A stretch of DNA of 64,000 nucleotides, taken from positions 726,072 to 790,071 of the forward strand of contig WFMF01000047.1 in NCBI GenBank assembly GCA_011033025.1, in the 5' to 3' direction. The DNA comes from Beroe forskalii. Taxonomy: Eukaryota; Ctenophora; Nuda; Beroida; Beroidae. The notes under the pieces are model-generated. The model ran no database searches and was not told where the DNA came from. It worked only from the letters and a program-made list of their open reading frames with translations. How positions within the stretch are numbered: position 1 is the stretch's first letter; the number at the start of each line of letters is the position of its first letter. Both the position numbers and the translations under genes were made by a program. Below are positions 718-42,845 of this stretch, piece by piece.

Positions 718-882
718 AATGTTACGTAGGTTACTTTTACTAAATGAGACTCTCTTCTAAAAAGGCCGAATCTAAGATATAATGAGATAATCCAAAAGTA
801 TAGTTATAATCCAAAAACTGAACTAAACGAAAAATAGAAAAACTATACTCTAATCCACGCAACGCGTGATATACGAAATAGC

Positions 883-1378
883 GGCTAAAAATGGGTGGAC
901 TCAACTCCGCGGCGGACCCGCTGCGGACCCGGTGGACCCGCTGCGGGTCCGCCGCGGACTCCACTAAAGTCCACCAGGAAAATTTTTTGGTGGACTTTGG
1001 TGGACCCGCAGCGGACTTTTCGAAACTCCGCCGCGGAGTGGTGGGTCCGCTGCGGGTCCGCTCGGGCTCCGCCGCGCACTGGTGGACAGTCCACCGAAAA
1101 AGTCCACCTAAAAAGTCCACCAGGGAAAAAGTCCGCCGTGGAATGGAGTCCACCGTGGAGTTTTTGTCCACCGAAGGACTCCACCAGCGGACTCCACCAG
1201 CGGACTTTGGTCCACCAGCGGAGTCCACAGGTGGAGTCCACCAGCGGAGTCCACCGGTGGACAAAAACTCCACCAGCGGAGTCCACAGGTGGAGTCCACC
1301 AGCGGAGTCCACCGGTGGACAAAAACTCCACCAGCGGAGTCCTCTCGCGGACTCCACCGGACGAGTCCGACTCCACTT
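883..1378. repeat. Left minisatellite arm of the foldback element
   Basis: A GC-rich array of GGACTCCACCAGCGGA-type units with frequent internal dyads (GTGGAC/GTCCAC). The lack of stop codons in several frames gives long Trp/Pro/Ser-rich reading frames on both strands; these are artefacts of the unit composition, not genes. Confidence 0.85.
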
Positions 1379-1489
1379 TTGATCTGATTGGAATTTTTTG
1401 ATGCGGTAAAAAGTATTCAATCAATATGAATTTAACATGTGCTTAAAAATAGCGAACGAGGTGCTGCGTAACAGCGCCAAGTGAGTTGT

Positions 1490-1556
1490 GTATTTGAAGG
1501 CCCAACGGGCCTGCTAGTCTTTATCTTAAACTAGAAAGGCCCGTTGGGCCTGCTAG
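1490..1556. repeat. Inverted GGCCCAACGGGCCTGCTAG repeat
   Basis: GGCCCAACGGGCCTGCTAG is followed after a short spacer by CTAGAAAGGCCCGTTGGGCC and then TGCTAG, so the block can fold as alternative hairpins. A diverged copy (GAACGGGCCTGCTAG) recurs at 2656-2672 in the same element core. Confidence 0.6.
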
Positions 1557-2234
1557 ATAATACAGGACCAAATAATAAGCCCTCAAAAAGTTTATGAAGG
1601 AGCAGAATTTACCATTATTCGTTGGTTACTTTTAGTCATGCTGGACCGTGCAAGTTTTGATCATTATAATTTGCTTTTATGATGAATTTAAATCTGAAAA
1701 TTAAAACCGATGATCGTACTCATACTGAACGTTGAATCAAAGCATTGATTTACGCCAAGAGCAGTATTCAATATCGCAATGAGCTATGCCCAAATTCGAT
1801 TCAGTTTGATTTTGATTTTGTTCAATCTTAAACTGCTGTAAATTCACATTTTCCGTTACCATCAACTAGCATTGATTTAAATCGACCGACGTCTGTCACA
1901 AATATTTGGAGAGATGCTAACGGAAATAGCCTCCACGATGCCATCCATACCCGTTCTCTATTTTCAGATCTTGAATTTCAAATGAAAAACAGTAAACACG
2001 TCGTTCTTTCAGACGCTAAACCGCAGCAATATACAACGTATCAGAAAGCACTCGCATAGAACTGATCATAATCTGCACGTGCAGAATATCTGTATCCATA
2101 GCAACGGCGCGACTTAGCCCAGCTTAGCCTTCGTTTCTCTTGATATTTTCTTGGCAAGCTCAGATTTAATTGTATACGGAAGCACAGACAAACATTATTC
2201 ACGTGTGACTTTACTTTATATATAAGATTTGGTA

Positions 2235-2460
2235 AGAGTATGGATTTTGTGTCGGCGTGTGTGTGGATTATTGTGTCGGCATCATGGATAAGAATGGGGA
2301 AACCGTGTGTATGGGCACTGCGTCGGCGTGTGTGTGGATTTTGTGTCAGCGTGTGTATGGGTCATTGTGTCGGCATCATAGATTAGAATGGGAAAACCAT
2401 GTGTATGGGCACTGTGTCGATGTGTGTATGGATTTGTGTCGGTATGCACGTGCAGATAGT
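2235..2460. repeat. Tandem duplication of about 112 bp, GTGTCGG-rich
   Basis: A GT-rich unit containing GTGTCGGCATCAT and GTGTATGGGCACTG occurs twice plus a partial copy inside the foldback core. Reading frames across it show no domain. Confidence 0.65.
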
Positions 2461-2713
2461 GGGAAATGCTTGCGTTGCTATGGTAATATGAGAAGGGTGT
2501 GAATTTCATTTCTGGCTTTGTTGATTTTGTTGCGCTACTCCACTGAACAACTTTGGTTCTGATTCGAATTTTTCGATGCGGTAAACAGTTTTTTTTTTAA
2601 TTAATTTGAACTGTTTAGGTTCTAAATTGGCGAGTGTGATGCTGCGTAGCAGCGCCGAACGGGCCTGCTAGTAATTAATAAATTGAGAAATTGGAACAAA
2701 ATTTGTACATAAA

Positions 2714-3183
2714 CTGAGCGGAGTCCATTGGAGGACTCCACCGGCGGAATCCACTGGCGGAGTCGAGTCCACTGGCGGAGTCGAGTCCACTGGCGGAGTC
2801 GAGTCCACTGGTGGAGTGGAGTCCACCAGTGGACTCCACTGGTGGAGTCCGCCAGTGGACTCGACTCCGCCAGTGGACTCCGCCGGTGGAGTCCACTGAC
2901 TCCGCGGCGGACTAACCTCCACAATTATTTTTTCCCTGGTGGACTTTTTTGGTGGACTTTTTCGGTGGACAGGGACTGTCCACCAGTGCGCGGCGGAGCC
3001 CGAGCGGACCCGCAGCGGACCCACCACTCCGCGGCGGAGTTTCGAAAAGTCCGCTGCGGGTCCACCAAAGTCCACCAAAAAATTTTCCTGGTGGACTTTA
3101 GTGGAGTCCGCGGCGGACCCGCAGCGGGTCCACCGGGTCCGCAGCGGGTCCGCCGCGGAGTTGAGTCCACCCATTTTTTAGCC
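2714..3183. repeat. Right minisatellite arm of the foldback element
   Basis: This is the inverted counterpart of 883-1378. The inner part is an array of GAGTCCACTGGCGGAGTC units not present in the same number in the left arm, showing that the arms have drifted in copy number independently. Confidence 0.85.
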
Positions 3184-3295
3184 GAAATAGCTTATCACGT
3201 GACTCCTACTACTGCGACTACTAAATGAGTAAAATAAAATATACTAGTATATAAATAAAAAATAACCTCCTTCCTATCTTAGTATCTATATAACA

Positions 3296-4055
3296 GGGTT
3301 AGCTAGAGTTAGGGTTAGCTAGGGTTAGGGTTAGCTAAGGTTAAGGTTAGCTAGGGTTAGGGTTAGCTAGGGCTAGGGTTAGTTAGGCAGGGTTTGCTAG
3401 GTCTTGGGTTAGCTAGGGAATGGGATAGGGTTTGCTTGGGCTTGGGTTATCTAGGGCTAGGGTTAGCTAGGGCTAGGGTTGCCCTGGGCTAAGGAAGGTC
3501 AGGGCTCAGCTTCAGTTAAGCTAGGGTTAGGTATAGCGAGGGTTAGGGATAGCTTGGGTTAGGGTAAGGGTTAGCTAGTGTTAGAGTTAGCTAGGGTTTT
3601 GGTTAGCTAGGGTTAGGGTTAGCTAGGGTTAAGGTTAGCTAGGGTTAGGGTTAGCTAGGGTTAGGGTTATCTAGGGTTAGGGTTAGAGTTAGATAGGGTT
3701 AGCGTTATCTAGGGTTAGGGTTAGCTAGGGTTAGGGTTAGCTATGGTTAGGGTTACCTAGGGTTAAGGTTACCTAGGCCTAGGGCTAGGGTTGGCTAGGA
3801 CTAGGGTTGGCTAGGACTAGGGTTGCCTAGGGCTAAGGAAGATCAGGGCTCGGGTAAGCTAGGGTTAGGGTTAGCTAGGGTTAGGGCTAGCCAGCGTTAG
3901 GGTTAGCTACTAGGTTAGGGTTAGTTAGGGTTAGGGCTAGCTAGCGTTAGGGTTAGCTAATGTTAGGGTTTGCTAGGGTTAGGGTTAGCTAGGGTTAGCT
4001 AGGGTTAGGGTTAGCTAGGGTTAGGGTTAGGTAGGGCTTGGGTTAAGGATACACA
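3296..4055. repeat. Degenerate telomere-like array (TTAGGGTTAGCTAGGG)
   Basis: About 760 bp of a 16-bp unit TTAGGGTTAGCTAGGG and variants (GGGCTAGGG, GGTTAAGG). Canonical TTAGGG alternates with TTAGCTAGGG, so it is not a plain telomere. The right edge joins ACACAGTGGCTGCAT, the same end sequence that borders the smaller array at 8.77 kb, suggesting both arrays are the core of one repeat family. Confidence 0.85.
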
Positions 4056-4962
4056 GTGGCTGCATTTTACGACAAAGCGAACAAATTATTTCCGCGGCGC
4101 GCGGACAATTTTACGACGTACGTACAGTGTACCGTGTTTGAAGGCACCTCGAAGAAATTCCTAAAAACTCACAGCAATGGGGTTTTTTGCATTGTTTAGA
4201 GGAAAGATAGCCCTATTCGATGTTTTTTCTCTCGTCTCCTAAGTCCATTCCAAAGCCGAGTTATCTCTCGATGAAAATGCGCGAAAATAAGGCTTTTTCA
4301 TAGGGCCATAACTCAAAAAGTATTCAAATGTCCATCTTGAAACCTTCGGCATATTAGAATTCAAGGCTTTATCTTTAATTTTATTTTTGGTTTGACAAGG
4401 CGAAACTAGGCGATCATATTCAAAATTGGCCGTCAAAATGAACACCCGAAAGATTTTTTTCGCCATTTCGCGTTTGCAGAAAGAGAGAACGCGCACAGTA
4501 TAATTTTGCGCATTTTCTCTTTCCTGATTCGTACTACGATCGTTAAATCATATTCATATGGATAGCTCTAGCTGGATAATGGAAACAAACTTTGTCACAT
4601 TATAATAACGAAACAGGAAATTAAATAAACATATTCACCGTACAGACATCACAACGAAAAAGTTCAAATCATTATACTCTTATACTTTATTATAGCTTGA
4701 TAAACAGATGACGTGGCATTTGGCAATTAAAATCGGCACTGGCCTGATCAGAGTAGGTTATATTCCTATATTCAGATATTCCTATTTGACACTGATAAGC
4801 ACCACCGTCCTGCGTTAAAAGTTATGCGTTCGGCTTTCGATTGGTTAATAACTTATTGATCACTATTCACTCCTCAATTAATAGCTAAATAATTGGCAAT
4901 ATTTTATTACCTCAGTGCTGAATATTCAAACCCGTCGTATTCCTATTCCCAACGACCCAACG
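4056..4962. other. No gene recognised
   Basis: Begins with a GC-rich flank (CCGCGGCGCGCGG near 4092) related to the arms at 8.64-8.98 kb, then AT-rich sequence. An open stretch on the minus strand at 4239-4496 has no recognisable domain. Confidence 0.5.
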
Positions 4963-5232
4963 TCAGCTTGCACCCGTTGCAACTGTCAACATTTCCTCGA
5001 ACTCACTCTCAGTCTCATTAAACCGAAACGCCGTACTTTTTAAAACGCTGTACCATGCACAGTTTCTGTCGTCGTTGAGGATTCCATGTTCGAGAGTGGA
5101 GAGACTGCTGCTGCCCAATCTCATGATCTCCAGCTTCCGTCCGAGATTTTCTGTCAAGGAAGTTCTGGAATCCCAGCACATCGACCAGTAACTTTCCAAC
5201 ATCAAGTTCAAGAAGTTCAGGAGCATAACGGA
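4963..5232 (-). CDS. Candidate terminal exon, unknown protein
   Basis: On the minus strand a good acceptor (TTATTTTCAG) at 5233-5242 precedes 89 open codons ending in TGA at 4963. The product starts SVMLLNFLNLML, and its second half is mixed charged and polar with an acidic stretch (NETESEFEEML) just before the end. A second frame also stays open for part of the same span (YAPELLELDVGKLLVDVLGF), so which frame is real is unsettled. No family is recognised and no partner exon was found upstream. It may be a fragment of a dead gene. Confidence 0.3.
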   Translation of the reverse strand, partial: SVMLLNFLNLMLESYWSMCWDSRTSLTENLGRKLEIMRLGSSSLSTLEHGILNDDRNCAWYSVLKSTAFRFNETESEFEEMLTVATGAS

Positions 5233-6473
5233 CTGAAAATAACTGAGCATAACGGCAGAAAACGTTAGAGTATAGGTATAATTGAGTATAATGATCCGAC
5301 AGTCGAGTCAATTTCACAATAGCAAATATGCTGTGATTGTGTGATAATGGATAAAATGATAGAATTAGAATAATCTGAACATTAATTTCAAAAGCTTAAA
5401 ATCATTGTCTAGAAACGCTCGACGTTATAATTATAAATTATTGACTCTATAGTCCATGAAGCCCTGGATCACACATGCAAAATTCTGATTCCGTACAATC
5501 CTATCTCGTCGCATTCAATTACAATAGAAATGGAATTGAAAAAAACGTTAAAAATACCTACTGATCCAAAGTTTAGATAAGCTGCTCCTGTTATACTGGC
5601 TCAGGCTGTAGCGTGCCATTTCGTGATGCTTGTCCGAAGATCGTCAAAATTCTAACACCTGCGACCATAATTATAAATATGATATAAGTATAATCTAAAT
5701 TCATTTATTGAAGATTGTATTAAAAACTAGAATGGTCATTAGAGTTGTGAATCTTGTCCAATGGTTATGGTAATCCATTAGTCGTACCAAAACGTACGTA
5801 CAGCCTCCGACGATTGGTCTCAAATGTGCATGGTCAAATGCATGATCGTGCTTGTGTACGAAATAAAATGTTGAAAGTTAGATCGTAAAAAAATAACCTC
5901 AGATAAAATAAAACCCAAACAGATCACTTTGAAGCTCCGAATCCGATATTGAGATTGCGTGTTCCACTTCCATATTTTAGGACTTAGGTATAGGTATTGT
6001 CATTTCCTGCGGAAAGTTAGGTCGGTTTAAAAGTTAAAATGGTTTAAAAAATTTGGTCTTATCACTATATCAGAACCAGTACCTACCCCATTTATAGAAC
6101 GACTGATATAGGTAGTAGGTATTACTGAATTAAAACATCCAGTCATGGTCAAAACGGCCTTTATATCATGTATACAGCATGATCTTGTTTAAAAATCCTG
6201 ATTATAATACCTACAATTACAAATTTACTCGTTGGGAACAGCTGTTGCCACATTAAAATTAGAAGCCGGTCATTAACTATTATAAGTGTTAGGAATGCTG
6301 GTTATGAAATGGCTGGTCAAAAATTGCTGTCTGAAACGTATAGCTGAAACGGGATATGCGACTGAAAAACAACATATCAATTCTATGAAAATATGGCTGC
6401 AGACGCTTCTGACCCCTATAACATGAACAGAGAAGAGCGATGAAAATCACGCTCCTCCAAAGCTCCTCCAAGA
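5233..6473. other. No gene recognised
   Basis: AT-rich sequence without convincing exons, repeats or RNA structure on either strand. Confidence 0.5.
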
Positions 6474-6626
6474 GGCTAGCCACTCACAGCTGCCCAAAGC
6501 TATCAGGTGGGGAAAGTCTTGATGCTGATTGGATGTTTGCATGGGGCTTCTTCTGCACTGGCTAGCCACTCACAGCATCCCAAAGCTATCAGGTGGGGGC
6601 CGTCTTGATGCTGAGTGGATGGGACG
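6474..6626. repeat. 86-bp imperfect tandem duplication
   Basis: GGCTAGCCACTCACAGC and the following AAAGCTATCAGGTGGGG, CTTGATGCTGA segments occur twice, 86 bp apart, with a few substitutions. No coding function is seen. Confidence 0.75.
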
Positions 6627-8130
6627 ATCGAGAGTAAGGTAAACAATCAGATTGAGTGTAGCTAACACGTCAAAGAGAAATTCCAGGCCTGATGGGGTGA
6701 TCTGATTACTAAAGTTTCACCTTTATTGTCTAATTAGTCAGTAGGATGAGATAGAAGCTGATCATACACGTCACGAATGATAGGCTGTTCAGAATTGCGT
6801 CACTCAATTGATTGTACTGGTAAATTTGAAGAATTAATGATGTCTCACCCCGTATTCTTGTGTGCAGCACATCCTTGCACTCGGGATGAAGAGGAAATGG
6901 CAAAATTTTCCCTTCCTCACGTGTAATGGCGGCTGATGGATCACGATTTTCTGCTATTCTCAGAACAAGTCTGTACTATGTTTTTTCTGGCAATGGCATC
7001 CGGGCCCCATTTCATGGAAATTTCTGTCGGCTGGTAATTTCTATTTACCACACAATTAGACATATCACAGGTAGGTGTTGCCTTTGAGAGAAATCTTGAT
7101 GAATTTCAATTATAGTTAATGGATCAGTTTTTTAGGAAGGTAGGTTTGGTACTAAAATGCGAAATGATCGCGCGAAGAATTGTACGTCCGTTATTTGCGC
7201 GATGATTTTCCGCGCGATCGTACGTCTCAGGATTTAAGCTTTAAAAGTTTAAAGGATACCGATGGAGCAATAAGAAAGCATTGAGTATCTCTTTCTCACT
7301 CGTCACTCAAAGCATATAATGAGCATATCATAAAATAGCTGTTCCTACTTTTGTACTGCAGGGAAATATAAACAATAACATTAGAACGGCAGAATTAGAT
7401 GATGATCTAACACTAACAGTCACACTGAAACTCATGGCTTTGAAGTCATGATAGCTGGAGGCGGAGCTGGGTGTTTCCTTACGCCAGACTACGGGAACCA
7501 CAAAATATTTATGAAATTAAGGAGTATAAGGAATTGTCTGATTTCTTTCGAGGGAAAAGGGTGTATCAAAGTGGCAGATTCCAAACATTCAGTGGGAATA
7601 TTGTTAAAATATTACGTACATCATTATACGGCGGTACTTAATAATGTAGCCCAAGGTTTCGTACGATTATAAAATGCGGGAGTTTTGAAGCGGGACGTGT
7701 TTTGTATTTTCAAAGTGAAATAGAAATATTTAATATGGAAAAGGCGGCACTGACACTTTTGAATTTGAATTCATCGCTCAAGATCATAATGCTGATGGAT
7801 ATGATTATGATTGATGCCGCTTAATGCTATTGCTCGGCTCATTCATAATCTAAATCATGCTTGTTAACTATTAAACTGATAAAGGTATACCTATAAATGC
7901 ACTGATTATGATAATTGTGAATTGTACAAATAAGATATTTCTTGTGAATGCGAATCTATAGTTTTATAATAGTTATACAGACCCTGGTCCTCATGAAAAC
8001 CAAGATCCTAAAATACTGTGGCCGTGGTTAAGAGCAAAGTCCGAACACTTTGAAATAAAGATATTCGTTTATCAAGCACGGCACAATCGTCAAAAATTGA
8101 AAATCCCGGCAGCTTGAGGACTTCACCCCT
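6627..8130. other. No gene recognised
   Basis: Mostly AT-rich. A small CG-rich dyad with GCGCGAT/ATCGCGC motifs lies near 7160-7225 and resembles the arms at 8.7-8.9 kb. A 74-codon open frame at 7448-7672 has no recognisable domain. Confidence 0.5.
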
Positions 8131-8480
8131 GATATTTTAAAGGTTAAGCGTACCTAAAAACATTCCAGGTCCTTGTAAACGGTCTCGAGGATCTTGACTT
8201 AGCAATTTCAAACTTCAAGATCATATTCGAGGTCCTTATAAATGGACTCGCTCCAGGATTTGGCCTTCGTGACTTTTAAGGTATAAATTGAAAAAAGGAA
8301 ATTCCACTTACAGGTCCTAATTTTAAATTCTAACCGAGGATTTTGCCTTTTCCAAAACGAATATAAAAGCTTAAAAGGTTAAAGGTTAACATTCCGGGTC
8401 CTTATAAATAGACTCGACGTTATAAACCTTTGCGAATATAAAGGTTAACATTCCGGGTTTTAATGATTTGAACGGATCCG
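8130..8480. repeat. Diverged tandem segments with GGTCCTTATAAATGGACTCG
   Basis: The phrase CATTCC-GGTCCTTATAAA-GACTCG recurs about four times with the spacer AAGGTTAA(C/G) between copies. The copies are strongly diverged. Confidence 0.5.
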
Positions 8481-8599
8481 AGGATTTCACTAGGCAAGCA
8501 GCAATTTACAATCACAATATTCAATCACAATATTCAATGGTTGCATTCAGCATTGCAACGTAATTATCAAATTAAGAATCCGAAGTCTGAATTACGCGG

Positions 8600-9000
8600 C
8601 GGAATTCACACAAATTCAAAAAAATCAAAAATTGCCAAATTGTGACACCGCGCGGCACAGGCGCCGCGCAGTGTCACATTTGGCAAATTTTGCGCTGAAT
8701 GTTTGCAAATTCTTTTTCGGAGCGCGCGAAATTCGCGATCGCGCGATAATTTGTTCCTATGCAGCCACTGTGGGATAGCTATGGTTAGGGTTAGCAAGGG
8801 CTAGGGTTAGCAAGGGCTAGGGTTAGTTAGGGCCAGGGTTAGCTAGGGTTAGGGTTAACAGGGGCTGCATAGGAACAAATTCTCGCGCGATGATGAATTT
8901 CGCGCGTTACAAAACAGTTTCCAAAACAGAAATTGCCAATTTCAAAATATTGTGACACACTGCCAACTGTGCGGGTGTGCGCGCACGCCGCGCAGAGGTC
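8600..9000. mobile_element. Small foldback repeat with telomere-like core
   Basis: Two inverted arms carrying GCTGCATAGGAACAAATT and CGCGCGAT...GAATTTCGCGCG (near 8690-8765 and 8866-8925) enclose about 90 bp of GGTTAGCAAGGGCTAGGGTTAG repeats. The same junction, CACAGTGGCTGCAT, borders the large telomere-like array at 4.05 kb. No target duplication was identified with certainty. Confidence 0.55.
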
Positions 9001-9080
9001 TGTCAATGCAGCTTAACAGCGTACCGCTATAGCAGCTAGGAACGCGTTAGGACTTGCGTTACTCCTCAGCTGTTACTTCT

Positions 9081-9166
9081 TCCACCAGTCTTCCAATTCT
9101 CAATAGCCTCTTCCACATTCAACTCTCAAAGTGGAAGAGGCTTTGAAGTATTGGATGACTTGTGGA
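9081..9166. ncRNA. Imperfect 36-bp hairpin, precursor-miRNA-like shape
   Basis: Arms 9081-9116 and 9131-9166 pair over 36 positions: a perfect 12-bp inner stem (AGCCTCTTCCAC with GTGGAAGAGGCT), a small internal mismatch zone, then TCCAAT and TCCAC pairs. The loop is 14 nt. Size and shape match a miRNA precursor or a tiny MITE. No expression evidence is available; strand of any transcript is unknown. Confidence 0.3.
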
Positions 9167-9810
9167 TGAGGCAAAAGTAACGCGGTATAACGCATTAATG
9201 CTCAGTTGTAGTCCAAATGATCGTTCGCATTTTATTGTCATCTTGAAACGTTGCCATATCTAGAGTCTCTTTTCAATTCCAAATCCAAGCCGTTGCCTTT
9301 TTCCAAAGATTGTTTTTAATTACTTTCCACAATCGTTCTTCGGCTAATCATACATTATTTTATGCTTTTTTGATATTTCATGCACTAGTGCAGTATCTCT
9401 CGTCCAGTATCTCTCGTGAAATTGGATATAATCATGATCATGGGTTTTCCTCATACTCTCATAGTCATTCTGGTCATTACTTATACTATTTATCTATTTA
9501 TAAAGAGCGTCCCATTTCAATTTCATGATTGACTTTGCGTTTATATTTTTACTTTTATTTATATTTTACATCTTTAAACCAATTACATTTACAGCTACGT
9601 TGAGCTCTTGAGATGACTTTTTGCGTTTCAGTTGTACTGTTGAGATAGTCGCCTGTAATAAGTATTACTTAGAGTTGGAGTTTACTTGCTCAATCTCGAT
9701 TTTGATTGTGTATTTTCAACTTTTTTCCTCATTTTGAATGAATATACAGTTCTAAATATATGGAATTTCTTGAAATATATTGTATTCGATAATATCATAT
9801 GCCAATAATT

Positions 9811-10278
9811 GGCGCTATCCCCGGCGGAGTCGACTCCGCGCGGACTCCGCTCGGACTCCGCGCGGAACCGCTCGGACTTCGGCGGACTCCGCGCGGACTT
9901 CGGCGGACTCCGCGCGGACTTCGGCGGACTCCGCCAAAAATTTTCGCAGGCGGACATCGAAAGTCCGCCGCGGAGTTCCGAGCGGAACCGCGCGGACTCC
10001 GCCATTCCGAGCGGAGTCCGAGCGGACTCCGCCAGGCTCCGCCGCGGAGCGGCGGACAGTCCGCCGAGAATTTCTCTGCCGCGGAGTCCGAGCGGAGTTG
10101 ACTCCGCCGCGGAGTCCGAGGCGGAGTCCGCCGCGAAATCCGAGCAGACTTGTCCGCCGCAGAGTCCGAGCGGACTCCGCCGCGGACTCCGCTTCTGTGG
10201 GGTCCGAGCGGACTCCGCTCGGACATGGATTCCGCGGCGGACTCCGCCCGGCGGACACCGCCCGGCGGACACACCTGT
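9811..10278. repeat. Left minisatellite arm (GGACTCCGCGCGG units)
   Basis: A GC-rich array whose composition leaves several frames open on both strands; the Arg/Ser-rich frames are not genes. It mirrors 15665-16046. Confidence 0.85.
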
Positions 10279-10334
10279 ATATTGTAAATCACAATTATAA
10301 ATAGAGTGCGTTGTGTTTCGGATTCTAATAATCT

Positions 10335-10445
10335 AAATAAGTGGCGAGGGTTTGGGTTTGGGTTAAGGTTTGGGTTGAAGTGTTTGAGTGACTGTTAGTG
10401 TTACCCTGACCCAAACCCGACCCTAAACCAAGCCCTTACCTAACC
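10335..10445. repeat. Short GGGTTTGGGTTAAGG telomere-like tract
   Basis: GGTTTGGGTTTGGGTTAAGG is followed by CCTGACCCAAACCCGACCC in the opposite sense, a small inverted pair. A matching inverted copy lies near 15510-15545 at the other end of the foldback element. Confidence 0.6.
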
Positions 10446-10844
10446 TGGGTTGTAAAAATTAAATACGTGCTAAAAATCGAGAAAAAAATACGGCGTATTG
10501 GATCCTGGAGAAAAATACGCGTTTTTTTCAAAAGTACTTGACAAGAAATGCCAACACCAGGTCTGAATGCGGAATGTGAAATGCGCAAAAAAGCACGCTC
10601 GAAGCGTGCTACCGAATTTATATTTGATATCGTCATCATTTTGGGCGCAATATGCGACGTTTTTGCACACATTAAAATAAAAATTAATCATATTATTTAA
10701 CTCACGGCCTGCAGTTCGCCTGATTTGAAATCCAGTTTACGGAGTAGCCTCGTAACTTTTGCTCGGATGTTAAATAATATTGTTACTACACACTCTTTCG
10801 GTGTGGATTTTCAATATTCCACTCGGCTTCGCCTCGGGGAATAT

Positions 10845-11480
10845 TATACTTAGAGATCAAATGTCGTACCCTGAGATCAAACGTTGTACCTTAGTACCTT
10901 GGGATCAAACGTCGCAGCGCCTGGAATCAGTTGTTATACTTAGAGATCAAATGTCGTACCGGCCTGAGATCAAATGTCGTACCCTGAGATCAAATTTCGT
11001 ACCTTGGGATCAAACGTCGCAGCCTGGAATCGGTTGTTATGCTTAGAGATCAAATGTCGTACCCTGAGATCAAATGTCGTAGCCTGAGATCAAACTTCGT
11101 ACCTTGGGATCAAACGTCGCATCCTGGAATCAATTTCTCTACTTAGAGATCAAATGTCGTACCCTGAGATCAAATGCGTAGTGTCGTACCCTGAGATCAA
11201 ATGTCGTAGTGTCGTACTTTGGGATCAAACGTCGCAGCCTCGAATCGGTTGTTATACTTGGAGATCAAATTTCGTACCCTGAGATCAAATGTCGTACCCT
11301 GAGATCAAATGTCGTACCCTGAGATCAAATTCAAACGTCGTACTCTAGAGATGAAATGTCGCGCCGTGGAGATCAATTGTCGTACTTTTTGTTACTATCA
11401 TTTTACAGTATGGGATGAAATGTCACACCCAGGGAGATCAAATGTCGTACTTTATGCCACTATCAATTTACAATAGCCTA
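10845..11480. repeat. 20-bp minisatellite AGATCAAATGTCGTACCCTG
   Basis: About 25 imperfect units of AGATCAAATGTCGTACCCTG and variants (AAACGTCGCAGCCTGGAATC). It is preceded by a small dyad, AATATTCC-ACTCGGCTTCGCC-TCGGGGAATATT. An 88-codon open frame across it is a by-product of the repeat. Confidence 0.8.
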
Positions 11481-11489
11481 AATGTAGAG

Positions 11490-13108
11490 ATGAAATGTCG
11501 TATGTTGAGATGAAGTGTCACAGAGGGACGCCTCGTGCACATTAGTGTACTAATTAACAGTCGGCTTCTCCTTGTGTGATTAGTACACTTATTGGCACTC
11601 AGCTTCACCTCGTGCAATTAAGCAATTAGTGCAGTAAACGACCGAGTTCAGGTTCTTAGGGCCAAATCGCACGGGGACAAAAATCGTGGAAACTTTCATT
11701 TCTCACCAAAATTCGGATTTTACCTATCGTGCGATTTCATTTTTTTAAGGCAACTTTTCGTGAGATCTGAAAACGTGGTGAGAAAAGTGGTGAAAAGTAT
11801 CACCGGCCTCAGGAGAGGTGACAGTTTTCACCACAATCGGTGAAATCTTTGTGGTGAAATCAAAACTCCGTCCGTTTTCAATATCGGTGAGATTTGTCAC
11901 CACTGATCACGTGCAGTGACGAAAAGATCACGCGCATGGTCACGTGATAGTGGTGGAAAGTTTCACGAAGGTACAAAAAACCAAAACGTACGGTAGCGGT
12001 GAGATGTAGCGTTGCAACACACGCAGTCATTGACCAATCAGCGCGCTGCATTCCAAGAGTGCGGGAAACACAGTAACCAGCGGGAAACACAAATAATCAA
12101 ATAGCATCAATCTTTTTAAATGTGTTTCGTTCACATCTCGCTATGCCTTCTCATTCCCATTTCTGTTGCGCTGCCACTATGCATTTTGTTTTTTCTCCTG
12201 TATTTTTTATCCTGTACAATTATGGCATTCCATTGAAGGTTGTGTTAATTCCGGCTGATTGATGTAGGAACTTTACTGTAACCAGGTATCGATGAATAAT
12301 AAACATCCAGCAAAAATATGTGGCCAAGAATAGACAAAAGTCGAATCAAATAGCAGAGAAAACAGTGAACTGCAGTGAAAGCAGTGATAGCAGCAGCTCA
12401 GTAAAGCAATCATTTCGAGAAAGTTAAAATCATAATATGCAAGAAAGATATGTAAAAAGATACAAAACCAAAAAAGATAGAATGAAATACAATATCATGA
12501 AATAAAGTGTGGAATTTGCATTTGATTTGTGTTGATCAGTTGCATTGCCATGTTGCCATGGTAACACATTCTTCGGAAATAGCAATAACTGAGAGTGAGT
12601 GAGAGCAATACGTCATTATCATTAGTAACAATGGTGTATTACTTTTTTTCACACACGGAGGAGCGGAGGATAAATGTCGCCGGTGCAGTTTGGTACATTG
12701 TGCAATTACTATCCCGTGAGAAATGTAAAATAGGCACTTAAAGTCATTGACTTACTATATTCAACCATATAGTAATTACGTCATTCTCACCTGTCTATTA
12801 TTACTGTGCTGCAAAAACAGAGTTTCACCAAATGTAAATTCGCTCATTTTTACCCATTGCCTTTCATTATTTTGTATCTCTTTCCAAGTTCTGTTGTAAC
12901 TGAGGCGTTTCACAAAGTGACATGCTACCAAGATTAATTCATTTTCTCCTTTGTTTGTTTTCCAATTATTGTTTGTACTTCCAAGATTGCTAGTGTTTCA
13001 TTAACAGCATCTCAACACATTTTTAGCCAATAGTCTTTCGATTGCAAGGCCTTTGAGATGGATCCATGCTTTGATTTGATTCGCCTTTAAAAATTTTCGT
13101 CCTCTACA
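11490..13108. other. Inner inverted segment and unannotated sequence
   Basis: GCAGTAAACGACCGAGTTC and CTTAGGGCCAAATCGCACGG (11630-11680) reappear inverted at 14605-14630 and 15300-15325, marking another inverted-repeat pair nested in the large element. The span 11700-11900 has repeated GGTGAAA/TTTCACC words. 12.1-13.1 kb shows nothing recognisable. Confidence 0.5.
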
Positions 13109-13110
13109 TA

Positions 13111-13656
13111 GGGGGGGGCGGTGTCACTGTCCCAATTGTCCCAAACTCAAGAAAAAGTAAATTGGGACAGGGACAATTGGGACAAATGGGACAGAGAAAA
13201 TGGAACAACTGGGACTCAAAAAGTGAATACGGACTGGGACAAATGCGACATTTGGGACAAATGGGACATTTGGGACAAAAGTGACAGAGACAACTGGAGC
13301 TCAAAATGACAGTGTTTTTGAGCGGCAGTTTAGTGTTTTTTGTCTCACAGCCTGTTACATAGTGGCACTTGCTGCATTGCAACTGCCGCTGTCTTTTTCC
13401 TATCATGGGTTTTGGGATAGGGAACATTTAACAACTGCAAACAAACACAACCAAAACTTGTACTTAGCATATGAATATAACTTTCATTTCAATGATAGAA
13501 AAACTTGGATCAATGTAAAAAATGATAAATGACTGATTTTTTCAACTTTTTGTTTGTCCCAAATGTCCCAGTTGTCTCAATTGTCCCAAAAACCAGTCCC
13601 AAACTCAAAGAAAGTAAATTGGGACAGGGACAATTGGGACAGTGACACTCCCCCCA
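13111..13656. mobile_element. MITE with GTGTCACTGTCCC ends, TA duplication
   Basis: Inverted ends share GTGTCACTGTCCCAATTGTCCC (22 bp, broken here as GTGTCACTGTCCC plus AATTGTCCC) outside a G-rich cap (GGGGGG). TA flanks both sides (13109-13110 and 13657-13658). Sub-terminal direct copies of AAATTGGGACAGGGACAATT lie just inside both ends. No transposase is encoded. A 5'-truncated copy lies at 32046-32545. The TA duplication fits Tc1/mariner-type mobilisation. Confidence 0.75.
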
Positions 13657-14242
13657 TAGGCTTTTCCAGCCCCTTCGAGCCCTGCGTGCTACACGATGTA
13701 TACTGTTTTGCAGTTGCAGTACATTTTGCTTTTTAATTCTGCGTATCAAATGGTTGTATTGCTGTGTATAGTCATGATGATGATGTATGATTCGAACTCG
13801 CATTTTAAGATGGGACATTTTAAGATAGGACAGGAACTACCAATTACCATGACCCTCAGACAAAATTTACAATACATTGTTTTGCAAGCCAGCACTGATT
13901 TTGTGTTTCCATTTTGCGATGTTATTAGAAATTTGTTTCGAGCTTGGCTGTTCACTGGCATGATGTATGCAGTTTTGAATTGACAGCTTGACTGAAAATG
14001 CTCACTGGGCACTGTCTCGTACCATACTGCTGACTGGTCATCGATGGATACATTTTGATGCTCATGCCAGGCTGCTGACGGGTCACTGACTGCTACCAGA
14101 CTGCTGACTGTACACTGGGTGCGTTGAGGATGTGTTTGGGGTGCACACTGATTTGAAGGGTTTATTCAGGGTGCTTCACCTATTTCAGTAATTCAGCAGC
14201 CTGCAGTCATGCTCATTAACTCAGATGAACTGTTTGATATTG

Positions 14243-14317
14243 GACCTGATCGGGATTTGAACCCACAACCTCCTGAGAACATTTCGGATGCTTTGCAATT
14301 GAGCTATCAAACATGCC
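14243..14317 (-). repeat. tRNA-like sequence (degenerate)
   Basis: On the minus strand an A-box-like TAGCTCAATTGC (14295-14306) is followed at normal spacing by a perfect B box GGTTCAAATCC (14253-14263). The acceptor arms do not pair and no CCA-proximal stem forms, so it is a tRNA pseudogene or SINE head rather than a working tRNA. Confidence 0.5.
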
Positions 14318-14702
14318 ATTTTATCCGCCGTTCGTTTTGGCGAAAAATAATATTTCCGTGATTTCGAGATCTCGGACGTGGCAAATTACACGGATATTTT
14401 GTTACGCCGTGCGTTTTCGCGAAAAATAGCAATTTTGGTGACAAATTACGTCGTGCGATTTGGTGCAATTTTGTTTCCGCGAAATGCATTGAAAAGCTGT
14501 CGCCGTACGTTTTGATCATTTTTATACCGGCGTGAAATATTCCGCCGTGCGATCTCACGAAATTTGGACGTGATAACTGACCTGGGCACATTTTTTCACG
14601 ATTTTTGTCCCCGTGCGATTTGGCCCTTAGCCGAGGCCGAGACCGAGTTTGCATCGTCAAGGCCGGAGCCGAGGCCGAGGCCGAGTTCAACCGAGTTAAA
14701 TG

Positions 14703-14900
14703 GGTCAGTGGTGTAGTGGTATCGAGTTGAGCACAGGATCGAAAGATCCTGGGTTCGATTCCGGTCCAGCGCCACTGGGCTAAGGGTGAGAGATTCATCT
14801 TGAGCCTATGCAGCCCGACGGTTCACTCAGCCGAGCGTGCAGGAAACTGTACGGGAGGGTTAAATGAGGAGCTGCCCATTGCAGCGAAGTCTCGGGCGAC
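14703..14900 (+). mobile_element. tRNA-derived SINE-like repeat
   Basis: A tRNA-like head with TGTAGTGGTATCG (14712-14724, A-box position) and perfect B box GGTTCGATTCC (14752-14762), including a GGATCGAAAGATCC stem-loop, runs into an unrelated GC-moderate body (CTGGGCTAAGGGTGAGAG, CAGCCCGACGGTTCACTCAG). Such a head plus body is the layout of tRNA-derived SINEs, transcribed by RNA polymerase III. No A-tail or target duplication was identified. Confidence 0.5.
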
Positions 14901-15664
14901 GAAAGTATGGATTACACTTCCTTAACCGTCACTGGCTTGATTACACTTGAATCCTTCGATTCCTGTCATTGGCCGTACGGCTGTTGGAATAGAAGTAAAA
15001 CCTTCGAAATGGATATAACTTTCGTAAAGCTACAATTATATATTGCCGTGATTTTCTGTAAAAATATTTTAAAAGAATCTTTTGCCAATTGAATCGGTTA
15101 AATACATGATCAATTTCTTATGTTTAATTTTAATCCAGAGAAAATTTTAGCTTGTTTGATCCTAAAATTCAGCCTAAGTTTTGAAACAACACATGAAATT
15201 ATGGCAATTAGCTTGGTATCAAACTCGGCAAAATGAAGCAAAATTTGGCCGAGACCGAGGCCGAGTTTGAAAAAAGGGCCGATTTTGGCCGAAGCCGAGG
15301 CCGAGTACTCGGTCGTTTACTGAATTAGTGCAACAATACCAGTATACCAATATGCGTCGTTAAATTAGCGTATAAACGTATAGAAGTTGAACGATGCATT
15401 TTGACTGATTATTCATATATTGCTCCACTCCCAAAAAGATTCGACAATTTTCAGAAAAAAATACGAATCGTATTTTTGCCGTACATTTTCAAAACACGTA
15501 TTTAATTTTAACAACCTTGACCCTAACCCAAACCAAAACCGTGATGGGTAATAATGCAAATCCTAATTTCAGGTCTTTAAGTTAAAATAGTGGCCAGGTC
15601 CGTGACATATCACAATACCTTACCAGGAGTTTATTTATATTTCAGGGTTATTTTTATTTTCAAG

Positions 15665-16046
15665 ACAGGTGTGTCCGCCGGGCGGAGTCCGCAGCGGAAT
15701 CCATGTCCGAGCGGAGTCCGCTCGGACCCCACAGAAGCGGAGTCCGCGGCGGACTCCGCTCGGACTCCGCGGCGGACAAGTTCCGATCGGACTCCGCGGC
15801 AGAGAAATTCTCGGCGGACTGTCCGCCGCTCCGCGGCGGAGCCTGGCGGAGTCCGCTCGGACTCCGCTCGGAATGGCGGAGTCCGCGCGGTTCCGCTCGG
15901 AACTCCGCGGCGGACTTTCGATGTCCGCCGGCGAAAATTTTTGGCGGAGTCCGCCGAAGTCCGCGCGGAGTCCGCCGAAGTCCGAGCGGTTCCGCGCGGA
16001 GTCCGAGCGGAGTCCGCGCGGAGTCGACTCCGCCGGGGATAGCGCC
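15665..16046. repeat. Right minisatellite arm of the 6.2-kb foldback
   Basis: The inverted copy of 9811-10278, shorter by about 85 bp through loss of repeat units. Long open frames here are composition artefacts. Confidence 0.85.
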
Positions 16047-16221
16047 CAATAATTGATAACAAGGTTCTCATTGACGACGATAATCATATGTTCCTCGATC
16101 AAATAATGCTTCGGATTCTAAAGAGCTAAAGTTTCTCGTATCACTAAACGTTTTCAACTTTTCCACTAGGTTCTAAATAAAGATTTGTACAGCTTGAGCT
16201 GTGCAGTGTCCACCGCCGGAC

Positions 16222-19835: not shown

Positions 19836-22060
19836 AAAATTGGTCAATTTTAACATTAAGTCGGATTGTCATGAAAATGGTCGGAATCGAAAGATATGGT
19901 TAGTGTGACCTATACCTAACTGAAAATTTGGGACAGATTGGGGTTATAGAAGTACCAAAATTTAGCTTGACTAAGTGGAATATCGTAACTTAAAATTCTT
20001 GACAAAAAAGTGGATCCACGTGTCAAAACATATAATTTCAGCCATTTTTACTTGGAATTCAGTTTCATATGGTAGGTATTGATAACATGAAACATATTAG
20101 GAAGTTTCAGATCAATATTTCAAATATTATGACTCTGGCGCCACTAATTGGGTCCTAATTGGTCAATTTTTAAATTAAGTCGGATTGTCATGAAAATGGT
20201 CGGAATCGAGAGATATGGTTAGTGTGCCCTATCACTGAAAATTTGGGACCGATTGGGGTTAAAGAAGTACCAGGCCAAAATTTAGCTTGACAAAGTGGAA
20301 TATCGTAACTTAAAATTCTTGACAAAAAAGTGGATCCACTTGTCAAAACATATAATTTCAGCCATTTTTACTTGGAATTCAGTTTCATATGGTAGGTATT
20401 GATAACATGAAACATATTAGGAAGTTTCAGATCAATATTTCAAATATTATGACTCTGGCGCCACTAATTGGGTCCTAATTGGTCAATTTTTAAATTAAGT
20501 CGGATTGTCATGAAAATGGTCGGAATCGAGAGATATGGTTAGTGTGCCCTATCACTGAAAATTTGGGACCGATTGGGGTTAAAGAAGTACCAAAATTTAG
20601 CTTGACAAAGTGGAATATCGTAACTTAAAATTCTTGACAAAAAAGTGGATCCACTTGTCAAAACGCATAAATTCGGCCATTTTTACTTGGAATTCAGTTT
20701 CATATGGTAGGTACTGATGCCATGAAACATATTGGGAAGTTTCAGATCAATATTTCAAATGTTATGACTCTGGCGCCACTAATTGGGTCTTAATTGGTCA
20801 ATTTTTTAATTAAGTCGGATTGTCATGAAAATGGTCGGAATCGAGAGATATGGTTAGTGTGACCTATAACTGAAAATTTGGGACAGATTGGGGTTATAGA
20901 AGTACCAAAATTTAGCTTGACAAAGTGGAATATCGTAACTTAAAATTCTTGACAAAATAGTGGATCCACTTGTCAAAACGCACAAATTCGGCCATTTTTA
21001 CATGGAATTCAGTTTCATATGGTAAGTATTGATGCCATGAAACATATTGGGAAGTTTCAGATCAATATTTCAAATGTTATGACTCTGGCGCCACTAATTG
21101 GGTCTTAATTGGTCAATTTTTGAATTAAGTCGGATTGTCATGAAAATGGTCGGAATCGAGAGATATGGTTAGTGTGACCTATCACAGAAAATTTGGGACT
21201 GATTGGGGTTATAGATGTACCAAAATTTAGCTTGACAAAGTGGAATATCGTAACTTAAAATTCTTGACAAAAAAGTGGATCCACTTGTCAAAACGCACAA
21301 ATTCGGCCATTTTTACATGGAATTCAGTTTCATATGGTAAGTATTGATGCCATGAAACATATTGGGAAGTTTCAGATCAATATTTCAAATGTTATGACTT
21401 TGGCGCCACTAATTGGGTCGTAATTGGTCAATTATTAAATTACCTTATTACATGAAATTAAGGTATCACTTAATTAAGGTGATCGAGTCGAATTTCACCT
21501 TAATTAAGTGCTCGTAAATTTTTACCAACCTTATTTTAAATACACCTACCATTTAAGTAACCTTAATTTTGAAAACAATGTGACGTCGTACTGGGAAAAA
21601 CTACCTGAATGATTTGATGGTGTCAACTTATACTTATCCCAGTTGGAAATAACTAGGCTATCCAGCCTGTTAGTACTGTACATGGAAAACGTTGAAATTG
21701 TTTATATTAATGAATGGATGGGTTTTGCAGTTTTAGAATACCACAGCTTTGACTCCAGAAAAGCTTATTTGGCGAATTTTTCGTGAAATTGTGGCAATTA
21801 CTAAAAGTCAAATCAAAATTTAACCCACAAAAATTTTCATCCAACACATAATCATAGGAACACAAATGTAAGGTTACATAAAATTAAGGTGATGTCCATT
21901 AAATTCACCTTAATTAAGTGCCCCTAAATAATGTGCAACCTTACATACTTGACAACCTTAATTTCATGTAATAAGGTAAGTCGGACTGTCATGAAAATGC
22001 TCGGAAAAAGTGGAATAATCTCACTCAAAATTCTTGACAAACAATGGGTCCACTCGTCAA
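19836..22060 (+). repeat. 315-bp satellite, forward block
   Basis: About six monomers of roughly 315-320 bp in one orientation, each with GGCGCCACTAATTGGGTC, TCGGATTGTCATGAAAATGG and ACTTGTCAAAACGCA. Phase points (GACTCTGGCG) are at 20131, 20451, 20766, 21081 and 21396. A MITE (21443-21976) interrupts the last monomers. Neighbouring monomers differ by few substitutions, showing recent homogenisation. Confidence 0.9.
21443..21976. mobile_element. 534-bp MITE inserted in a satellite monomer, TA duplication
   Basis: Inverted ends CCTTATTACATGAAATTAAGG are flanked by TA (21441-21442, 21977-21978). Removing the element and one TA restores AAATTAAGTCGG, exactly the uninterrupted satellite sequence seen in neighbouring monomers. 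Sub-terminal dyads CACTTAATTAAGGTGA and TCACCTTAATTAAGTG occur at both ends. No coding capacity. Confidence 0.88.
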
Positions 22061-22099
22061 AATGCATTATTAATTTCTCACCCATTATTTACAAGATTG

Positions 22100-24125
22100 A
22101 AATAGAATAAGTTTCATGCTTTCATGTTATCTATACCAACCATATGAGAATATGATACTGAATTCCATGCAAAAATGGCCGAATTTATGCGTTTTGACAA
22201 ATGGACCCACTTTTTTGTCAAGAATTTTGAGTTACGATATTTCAGTTTGTCAAGCTAAATTTTGGTACTTCTATAACCCCAATCGGCCCCAAATTTTCAG
22301 TGATAGGTCACACTAACCATATCTCTCGAGTCCGACCATTTTCATGACAATCCGACTTAATTAAAAAATTGACCAATTAAGACCCAATTAGTGGCGCCAG
22401 AGTCATAACATTTGAAATATTGATCTGAAACTTCCTAATATGTTTCATGGCATCAATACCTACCATATGAAACTGAATTCCAAGTAAAAAAGGCCGAATT
22501 TATGCGTTTTGATAAGTGGATCCACTTTTTTGTCAAGAATTTTAATAAGTTACGATATTCCACTTTGTCAAGCTAAATTTTGGTATTTCTATAACCCCAA
22601 TCGGTCCCAAATTTTCAGAGATAGGTCACACAAACCATATCTCTCGATTCCGACCATTTTCATGACAATCCGACTTAATTTAAAAATTGACCAATTAGGA
22701 CCCAATTAGTGGCGCCAGAGTCATAACATTTGAAATATTGATCTGAAACTTCCTAATATGTTTCATGGCATCAATACCTACCATATGAAACTGAATTCCA
22801 AGTAAAAATGGCTGAAATTATGCGTTTTGACAAGTGGATCCACTTTTTTTTCAAGAATTTTAAGTTACGATATTCCACTTTGTCAAGCTAAATTCTGGTA
22901 CTTCAGTAACCCCAATCGGTCCCAAATTTTCAGTGATAGGTTGCACTAACCATATCTCTCGATTCCGACCATTTTCATAACAATCCAACTTAATTGAAAA
23001 ATTGACCAATTAGGACCCAATTAGTGGCGCCAGAGTCATAATATTTGAAATATTGATCTGAAACTTCCTAATATGTTTCATGGCACCAATACCTACCATA
23101 TGAAACTGAATTCCAAGTAAAAATGGCCGAATTTGTGCGTTTTGACAAGTGGATCCACTTTTTTGTCAAGAATTTTAAGTTACGATATTCCACTTTGTCA
23201 AGCTAAATTTTGGTATTTCTATAACGCCAATCGGTCCCAAATTTTCAGTGATAGGTCACACTAACCATATCTCTCGATTCCGACCATTTTTATGACAATC
23301 CGACTTAATTTAAAAATTGACAAATTAGGACCCAATTAGGGGCGCCAGAGTCATAATATTTGAAATATTGATCTGAAACTTCCTAATATGTTCCATGGCA
23401 TCAATACCTACCATATGAAACTGAATTCCAAGTAAAAATGGCCGAATTTATGCGTCTTGACAAGTGGATCCACTTTTTTGTCAAGAATTTTAAGTTACGA
23501 TATTCCACTTTGTCAAGCTAAATTTTGGTACTTCTATAACCCCAATCAGTCCCAAATTTTCTGTGATAGGTCACACTAACCATATCTCTCGATTCCGACC
23601 ATTTTCATGACAATCCGACTTAATTGAAAAATTGACCAATTAGGACCCAATTAGTGGCGCCAGAGTCATAATATTTGAAATATTGATCTGAAACTTCCTA
23701 ATATGTTTCATGGCACCAATACCTACCATATGAAACTGAATTCCAAGTAAAAATGGCTGAAATTATGCGTTTTGACAAGTGGATCCACTTTTTTGTCAAG
23801 AATTTTAAGTTACGATATTCCACTTTGTCAAGCTAAATTTTGGTACTTCTATAACCCCAATCGGTCCCAAATTTTCAGTGATAGGTCGCACTAACCATAT
23901 CTCTCGATTCCGACCATTTTCATGACAATCCGACTTAATTGAAAAATTGACCAATTAGGACCCAATTAGTGGCGCCAGAGTCATAATATTTGAAATATTG
24001 ATCTGAAACTTCCTAATATGTTTCATGGCACCAATACCTACCATATGAAACTGAATTCCAAGTAAAAATGGCTGAAATTATGCGTTTTGACAAGTGGATC
24101 CACTTTCTTGACAAAATCTTGACAA
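22100..24125 (-). repeat. 315-bp satellite, inverted block
   Basis: About six and a half monomers of the same satellite in reverse orientation (TGGCGCCAGAGTCATAA at about 22393, 22711, 23028, 23343, 23658, 23978). The orientation change falls in a diverged stretch near 22060-22140, not in the MITE. A short partial duplication of the TTGACAAGTGGATCCACTT segment ends the block at 24090-24140. Confidence 0.9.
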
Positions 24126-42500: not shown

Positions 42501-42845
42501 TATATTGGTGAATCATCACGTTCGAAAACATTCTGAAGTCGTTTGACAAAATTAATTGTCGCAAGTCAGTAAGGCATACTAACTACAAACTTAACGCTTT
42601 GGTTGATTCAATGAAGTAGTCAAACTAAAACGAGAAATTGAGTGTACAACTAATTATTACGCAATCGATTTCAAGTCTTCTGTGGACTCTCATCACGGCT
42701 GGTGGTGGAAGAATTAGCGTACACTGATGTGCACTGTCCTGCTCTTCTATTTATACGACGTTGCAGTGTTGCACGTGCTGCCTTGGTAACAAATTTCTTG
42801 CACGTGCAGATTTCGATCTGGAGTATTGCCGAGTTGTCATCTTTC

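What the first reader, a model, noticed from the sequence alone, without database searches (positions are those of the whole stretch)
883..16046. One superfamily of elements whose terminal inverted repeats are GC-rich minisatellites
Elements 883-3183 and 9811-16046 differ in sequence but share GGC termini, exact 8-bp duplications and arms built from CGGACTCC-type units that vary in number between arms of the same element. Drosophila FB elements are the known analogue; an 8-bp duplication with GGC ends suggests a different, perhaps undescribed, lineage.
Basis: partly seen in the sequence, partly recalled or inferred. Interest (0 to 1): 0.78.

Follow-up and report, generated by a model that had tools for sequence, protein, structure and literature searches.

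The report
Jumping genes with palindrome-repeat ends
Two stretches here belong to one group of DNA transposons whose long mirrored ends are rows of short GC-rich palindromes; no transposase was found in them, and the best-fitting mover is a Merlin-type transposase that the same genome encodes in elements of similar build.

Summary
Elements 883-3183 and 9811-16046 have GGC ends and exact 8-bp duplications. Both are repeat families: 211 and 67 pattern ends, reversed-pattern control 3 and 28. Of 14 elements with two GGC ends, 13 have an exact 8-bp duplication. Element 1 has a related uninterrupted site. The families share end-anchored sequence and palindrome-rich arms, some with significant 10.5-11-bp periodicity.

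No transposase was found in the copies read. GG ends, duplication and TIR length match the published definition of Merlin, not Rehavkus with 9 bp. The genome has 35 Merlin-domain hits; one complete transposase-coding copy has GGC ends, an exact 8-bp duplication and arms of near-palindromes spaced 21.3 bp. I infer that families 1 and 2 are non-autonomous, probably Merlin-type, with arms as phased transposase-binding arrays. Against: 0 of 100 (of 211) family-1 and 0 of 33 (of 67) family-2 ends tested lie within 5 kb of a Merlin hit, and Merlin arms do not align with theirs.

The parts
875..882 (.). left 8-bp target-site duplication GAAATAGC of element 1
   Evidence: exact
883..3183 (.). element 1 (family 1), no transposase found, 2301 bp, GGC termini
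   Evidence: interior about 95-99% identical to five of the six other family-1 copies read, only partly matched by L080
883..1380 (+). left arm of element 1: 206 bp (887-1092) shared exactly with the right arm, then a minisatellite of GGAnTCC-type units
2713..3183 (-). right arm of element 1, inner array of an 18-bp unit
3184..3191 (.). right 8-bp duplication GAAATAGC
   Evidence: uninterrupted related site at G000:C157:110655-110890, 75% over query 23-254
9803..9810 (.). left 8-bp duplication CAATAATT of element 2
9811..16046 (.). element 2 (family 2), no transposase found, 6236 bp including a nested insertion
9811..10275 (+). left arm of element 2, GCGGACTCCGC palindromes, best period 10.5 bp
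15670..16046 (-). right arm of element 2, best period 10.6 bp
16047..16054 (.). right 8-bp duplication CAATAATT
11632..15322 (.). later nested insertion inside element 2: CAGTAAACGACCGAG ends, exact 8-bp duplication AATTAGTG; hAT-like ends (recalled, not tested)
11660..14625 (.). element nested in the nested insertion: GGCCAAATCGCACG ends, CTTAG on both sides

Best explanation
Elements 1 and 2 are non-autonomous cut-and-paste DNA transposons of one lineage. They carry what a transposase needs to see: a GGC terminus and a 300-500 bp arm at each end made of dyad-symmetric GGAnTCC motifs, in several arms repeated with about the DNA helical repeat. SHOWN: GGC ends, 8-bp duplications, copy families, shared ends, palindrome enrichment, periodicity significant in some arms, no transposase found in the copies read, Merlin transposase genes in the genome, and one complete Merlin copy of similar build. 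INFERRED: a Merlin (IS1595-type) transposase made elsewhere moves them in trans; its zinc-ribbon and helical N-terminal part binds the palindromes, which lie on one face of the helix, and its RNase-H (DDE) domain cuts at GG and inserts with an 8-bp stagger. Array length can then change by slippage, and the interior can be replaced (family 2), without loss of mobility.
For: 13 of 14 two-ended elements have an exact 8-bp duplication. End counts above reversed controls: 103+108 v 0+3, 33+34 v 9+19. Uninterrupted related site for element 1. Family-1 and family-2 ends are alike when anchored at the terminus: 3 and 0 of 2000 shuffles reach the score. All 28 family-1/2 arms examined hold more palindromes than any of 60 simulations each. 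Merlin: 35 Pfam hits; 141 rows with the transposase as query. The Merlin terminus GGCAGTATCCAAGTTGCCCGACA occurs 78+85 times, control 0+0; of 100 printed ends, 25 lie within 5 kb of one of 115 Merlin hits (27 pairs; about 0.5 pairs expected if both were spread evenly, my arithmetic). Copy C171:120483-123218: 297-aa ORF, CAATTTTC 8-bp duplication, both arms with regularly spaced 16-bp near-palindromes. The family-2 variant GGCACTATCC differs from the Merlin GGCAGTATCC by one base, the commoner GGCGCTATCC by two. Zinc cysteines and D/D/E conserved; model pLDDT 90, core matches retroviral integrases and a transposase.
Against: No family-1 or -2 copy with a transposase: 0 of 100 printed family-1 ends (of 211) and 0 of 33 family-2 ends (of 67) lie within 5 kb of a Merlin hit; within 10 kb one family-2 end does (9.6 kb) and one family-1 end lies 9.4 kb from a MULE hit. 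Merlin arms show no similarity to family-1/2 arms above shuffles in six comparisons, and the end-anchored match is weak (family 2: 141 and 307 of 2000 shuffles reach it; family 1: 734). Merlin arms are hardly richer in perfect palindromes than simulations (3 v max 3, 5 v max 4); their units are near-palindromes. Periodicity is not significant in every arm (of 300 shuffles: L064 134, L062 37, L065 32, element 1 left 24). Family-1 v family-2 arms score as well reversed as direct, so unit likeness alone does not prove collinear descent. MULEs can make 8-11-bp duplications and occur here; their ends were not read.
Confidence: 0.66

Rival explanations
1. The two families are non-autonomous MULEs (Mutator superfamily, FB/Rehavkus-like), moved by a MULE transposase.
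For: Long TIRs and 8-11-bp TSDs are MULE traits, Spectre has 8 bp, and Rehavkus has a minisatellite (PMC6446971, passages). The genome has 46 MULE hits.
Against: 0 of 100 printed family-1 and 0 of 33 family-2 ends lie within 5 kb of a MULE hit (equally so for Merlin). The duplication is 8 bp in all 13 elements that have one, never 9-11. The one transposase-coding element read here with GGC ends, 8-bp duplication and palindrome-type arms is Merlin; no MULE element was read.
Confidence: 0.17
2. An undescribed DDE superfamily moves these elements; the likeness to Merlin is convergent.
For: No autonomous copy was found, so the mover is unknown; arm sequences of families 1/2 and of the Merlin copies do not align.
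Against: Ends, duplication and TIR length all fall inside the published Merlin definition, the longest arms at its upper edge, so no new superfamily is needed.
Confidence: 0.11
3. hAT or P elements, which also make 8-bp duplications (recalled).
For: 8-bp duplication. A hAT-like element with CAG ends and an 8-bp duplication is nested in element 2.
Against: hAT ends begin CA (recalled); these begin GG in all 14 two-ended copies read. P profile: 0 hits, but its control genomes were silent too, so this says little. hAT profile not searched.
Confidence: 0.05
4. Independent GC minisatellites that look like TIRs by chance.
For: The arms do contain minisatellites.
Against: The same termini in 211 and 67 places, 8-bp duplications in 13 of 14, and an uninterrupted related site.
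Confidence: 0.01

Closest known systems
Merlin superfamily (eukaryotic relatives of IS1016/IS1595), PMC8101967 (passages read)
   Same: GG ends, 8-bp (or 9-bp) duplication, TIR within 24-462 bp; tandem repeats inside Merlin are already reported there, as are Merlin hits in three ctenophores
   Different: Arms made of palindrome arrays with a helical period are not described in the passages read; no transposase was found in families 1 and 2
Rehavkus / MULE, PMC6446971 (passages read)
   Same: long TIRs, a minisatellite before the 3' TIR in Rehavkus, 8-11-bp duplications for MULEs in general
   Different: Rehavkus makes 9-bp duplications; here 8 bp in 13 of 13 duplications; no MULE hit within 5 kb of the ends tested
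Drosophila Foldback (FB), Galileo and Tetris elements (recalled; Tetris PMC4079207 and Galileo PMC4168063 seen only as search listings with the start of the abstract)
   Same: long inverted arms with internal tandem repeats of variable number (recalled)
   Different: other superfamilies; duplication length and termini differ (recalled)
En/Spm and Ac subterminal transposase-binding repeats of plants (recalled)
   Same: many short binding motifs in the ends, the proposed working principle
   Different: other superfamilies, short TIRs; here the motifs are themselves palindromes inside long TIRs

Membership tests
Merlin | terminal 5'-GG | tested here: met
   GGC at both ends of all 14 two-ended elements (selected by these ends) and of the Merlin copy C171; definition from PMC8101967
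Merlin | 8- or 9-bp target-site duplication | tested here: met
   exactly 8 bp in 13 of 14 (L079 none)
Merlin | TIR 24-462 bp | tested here: met
   206 bp of element 1 100% complementary, 229 bp of element 2 96%; the whole arms reach about 377-498 bp, at or slightly over the upper edge
Merlin | DDE_Tnp_IS1595 transposase encoded | tested here: not met
   16 ORFs from the family-1/2 copies and 2 from inside element 2: no transposase by Pfam; 0 of 133 ends tested within 5 kb of a Merlin hit. Hence not filed as a proven member: 'works like, probably belongs to'
Merlin | for a non-autonomous copy: ends shared with a transposase-coding Merlin | tested here: inconclusive
   terminal ten bases 8 or 9 of 10 alike in family 2, but anchored alignments do not beat shuffles clearly and arms do not align
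Merlin (the separate GGCAGTATCC family of this genome) | GG ends, 8-bp duplication and IS1595-type transposase together | tested here: met
   L082 ORF PF12762 1.4e-19, D145/D208/E245 conserved, CAATTTTC 8-bp duplication
Rehavkus | 9-bp duplication | tested here: not met
   8 bp
MULE | MULE transposase in the element or in a partner with the same ends | tested here: inconclusive
   46 MULE hits, none within 5 kb of 133 ends tested, one at 9.4 kb; MULE ends not read
hAT | CA...TG termini (recalled) with 8-bp duplication | tested here: not met
   termini are GG...CC; hAT transposase profile not searched
P superfamily | P-type transposase | tested here: inconclusive
   PF12017 no hit, but silent in all 14 control genomes

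The most novel reading that the evidence does not exclude
A Merlin lineage recognises its ends by geometry more than by fixed sequence: arrays of dyad-symmetric sites set one or two helical turns apart. As long as symmetry and phase are kept the unit sequence can drift, so one genome holds several families (GTGGA-n-TCCAC, GCGGA-n-TCCGC, TARTRGAMKTCYAYTA) with the same design but unalignable arms. The minisatellite would then be the functional recognition array and not a by-product.
Probability: 0.28. Interest if true: 0.68.

Novelty: new variant of a known kind. Interest (0 to 1): 0.5.

Why it matters
Transposons with minisatellite arms (FB type) have been hard to place because their arms share little sequence across families. 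Here three end families of one genome share end chemistry (GG, 8 bp) and a geometric design, and one of them carries a readable Merlin transposase. If the arrays are binding sites, they give a testable reason why such arms exist, why unit number can vary, and how non-autonomous families diverge from their driver. It also adds a Merlin variant in an animal that is probably a ctenophore; the published ctenophore Merlin data that I saw are one sentence.

Tried and rejected
FB/Rehavkus as the family: set aside on the 8-bp duplication and the lack of a linked MULE. Chance minisatellites: rejected by copies and duplications. An autonomous family-1 or family-2 copy: looked for by eye in ORFs of the fetched loci, by Pfam on 16 ORFs of the copies and 2 inside element 2 (the one match, Cupin_7 in L080 at 17.5 bits, is below its cut-off of 27), and by position against Merlin and MULE hits; none. 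A family-2 end with a Merlin fragment 9.6 kb away (C225:550530 and 560159) was not counted. Homology between Merlin arms and family-1/2 arms: tested, not found. Uninterrupted site for element 2: none, only its own flanks; among the fetched loci the joined flanks of eleven other elements gave only two short spanning matches, both of L065 in L002 (86 bp at 77%, 48 bp at 83%), not pursued. Organism: the highest-ranked hit of the transposase that carries an organism name is Mnemiopsis leidyi, 86% over 43% of the query, so a ctenophore is likely but not established; the window's gag-like ORF gave three unnamed hits. Rfam and ARAGORN on the window: nothing. One search timed out with nothing printed; one search replaced it.

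Dropped rows: of the 20 regions, 12 had two GGC ends and entered the duplication count with the two window elements; six (L066, L068, L070, L071, L073, L074) showed no usable pair of ends in the stretch; L069 and L072 paired a GGC end with a degenerate end and had no duplication; L062, L064 and L065 also gave one pair each with a match inside an arm, without duplication, which I ignored. In one search family 1 was read one base out of register; one search is the corrected table. One search tested 10 of the 30 arms used.
Full report
WHAT IS THERE. Element 1 spans 883-3183 and element 2 spans 9811-16046, each with GGC...GCC ends and an exact 8-bp duplication, GAAATAGC and CAATAATT. In a scan of the whole window for exact 8-base inverted ends beside a duplication, only these two and a nested element (11632-15322) have an 8-bp duplication that is not itself a palindrome, outside tandem arrays. 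The window lies in G000:C547:726072-790071, an assembly of 216 Mb in 1134 contigs.

COPIES. A family-1 arm search scored 40 of 298 candidates; their best matches are 96-100% identical over most of the query. The terminus GGCTAAAAAATGGGTGGACTC with up to 3 mismatches occurs 103+108 times against 0+3 for the reversed control. The family-2 terminus GGCGCTATCCCCGGCGGA occurs 33+34 times against 9+19, so a good part of its 3-mismatch matches may be chance. Among the 100 family-1 ends printed, 32 form facing pairs, mostly 1.9-2.8 kb apart (extremes 595 and 3924 bp); the 33 family-2 ends with up to 2 mismatches form 7 pairs of 2.3-7.3 kb.

DUPLICATIONS. I read 14 elements with two GGC ends: the two in the window plus 12 of the 20 regions. 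Thirteen have an exact duplication of 8 bp and no longer; L079 has none. Of the eight other regions, six had no usable pair of ends and two (L069, L072) had one degenerate end and no duplication. In the 14 duplications listed (the 13 plus the Merlin copy below) the outer positions are mostly G/C (A/T in 3 and 5 of 14) and the middle A/T (13, 14, 12, 12 of 14 at positions 4-7), a mild symmetric target preference. The joined flanks of element 1 match a second place, C157:110655-110890, at 75% over query bases 23-254 of 254 in one alignment: a related site without the element. No such site was found for element 2.

ONE LINEAGE. Family-1 copies share arms and most of the interior at about 95-99% with element 1, L080 less completely. 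Family-2 copies as a set share about 400 bp at each end; interiors mostly differ, some pairs excepted. Between families, the first 45 bp aligned from the terminus beat shuffles (3 and 0 of 2000 reach the score): GGC, then about ten mostly unlike bases, then GGYGGASTYRACTCCG. Local alignment of the arms scores 78 against a shuffle maximum of 37, but the reversed comparison scores 71, because the units are palindromes; this shows shared units, not proven collinearity.

THE ARMS. All 28 family-1/2 arms examined contain more perfect palindromes (arm of at least 5) than any of 60 first-order simulations each (for example 17 v mean 2.8, max 6 for element 2 left; 10 v 1.2, max 4 for element 1 left). 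Full-length GTGGA-n-TCCAC units number 1-3 per family-1 arm and GCGGA-n-TCCGC units 4-11 per family-2 arm; shorter GGA-n-TCC cores 5-17. Scanning periods 7-20 in ten arms, the best period is 10.5-11.0 in nine (eight family arms and Merlin L082), but it is convincing only in some: of 300 shuffles, 0 reach it for element 2 left, 1 right, 1 for element 1 right, 4 for L077, 0 for Merlin L082; 24 for element 1 left, 32 for L065, 37 for L062, 134 for L064. Merlin L081 peaks at 7.1, a third of its 21.3-bp spacing.

THE MERLIN LEAD. GG ends, a TIR of 24-462 bp and 8- or 9-bp duplications are given as Merlin traits (PMC8101967, passages). The genome has 35 PF12762 hits and 141 rows with the transposase as query. 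Two genes were read, L081 and L082: 297 aa each, PF12762 at 8.4e-20 and 1.4e-19. Both stand behind GGCAGTATCCAAGTTGCCCGACACACTTA; its first 23 bases occur 78+85 times with up to 3 mismatches and never in the control. Of 100 printed ends, 25 lie within 5 kb of one of 115 Merlin hits (27 pairs; an even spread gives about 0.5 by my arithmetic); with 46 MULE hits there are 2 pairs. The copy C171:120483-123218 has both ends: its left flank CAATTTTC (L082) recurs exactly after its right end. Its arms hold seven 16-bp units TARTRGAMKTCYAYTA starting at 27, 49, 70, 91, 113, 134 and 155 (the seventh intact on the right, disrupted on the left), 21.3 bp apart on average; L081 has seven units within a base of the same places with other sequences. 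The units are near-palindromes: 5-8 of 8 dyad positions pair. Of 56 dyad positions compared, 41 pair in both copies, 5 of them through changes on both sides; 13 changed with pairing absent in at least one copy, and 2 are unpaired and unchanged. By perfect palindromes alone the Merlin arms hardly exceed simulations (3 v max 3, 5 v max 4). Selection for symmetry is a hint, no more, from two copies.

MECHANISM. Shown: ends, duplications, copy families, palindrome enrichment, periodicity in part of the arms, Merlin genes. Inferred: trans-mobilisation by Merlin and binding of the transposase to the palindromes. In the alignments the cysteines C35, C38, C60, C63 and D145, D208, E245 are invariant or nearly so. 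The model of a homologue 81% identical (mean pLDDT 90) has a beta-rich cysteine region, then three helices, then the RNase-H core; its best PDB matches are retroviral integrases (E 3e-5, TM-score by query about 0.3, up to 0.61 by target for isolated cores), with the ISCth4 transposase at rank 47. That the N-terminal part binds DNA is inferred.

AGAINST. No family-1 or family-2 end tested lies within 5 kb of a Merlin hit (0 of 100 and 0 of 33), and their arms do not align with the Merlin arms above shuffles (six comparisons); the anchored match of Merlin to family 2 is weak and to family 1 absent (141, 307 and 734 of 2000 shuffles). MULEs occur (46 hits) and their ends were not read. I therefore hold 'one lineage of 8-bp, GG-ended transposons' as near certain and 'Merlin-driven' as about two in three. 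After rechecking I lowered the last a little, because the weak Merlin palindrome count and the chance share of the family-2 pattern matches weigh against it.

NOVELTY. Tandem repeats in Merlin elements are already reported (PMC8101967). I saw no description of Merlin arms as palindrome arrays in six full-text searches of the open-access library (listings, and passages of two papers); subscription journals and Repbase were not searched. I rate it a new variant of a known kind.

Noticed in passing
window 4052-8772: Inverted ends CACAGTGGCTGCAT with an exact 5-bp duplication GGATA: Transib/RAG-like heptamer ends (recalled); an ORF of 124 aa inside gave no Pfam hit.
   Followed up: partly
window 11632-15322 and 11660-14625: Two nested elements inside element 2: CAG ends with 8-bp duplication AATTAGTG, and within it GGCCAAATCGCACG ends with CTTAG on both sides.
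   Followed up: partly
window 33502-55953: 22.4-kb inverted-repeat structure (ends ATAGCGTGCCGGCACGC, flanks share GAA), arm segments 95-100% complementary.
   Followed up: no
window 19838-24114: Inverted arms made of a 315-bp tandem unit, about 5 and 6 copies.
   Followed up: no
window 26596-30203: 3.6-kb array of a 30-bp minisatellite CCCACAGGGTGGGCTCTGGATAAGGAGGTT.
   Followed up: no
window 42501-47634: Inverted ends TATATTGGTGAATCATCACG enclosing 45-bp minisatellite arrays on both sides.
   Followed up: no
window 3295-4045 and 8772-8866: Array of AGGGTTAGCTAGGGTT, telomere-like, into which the 4052-8772 element seems inserted.
   Followed up: no
G000:C500:105935-106026, C259:643812-643967, C153:125930-126106, C425:312349-312551: Facing Merlin ends only 92-203 bp apart, possible miniature copies.
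   Followed up: no
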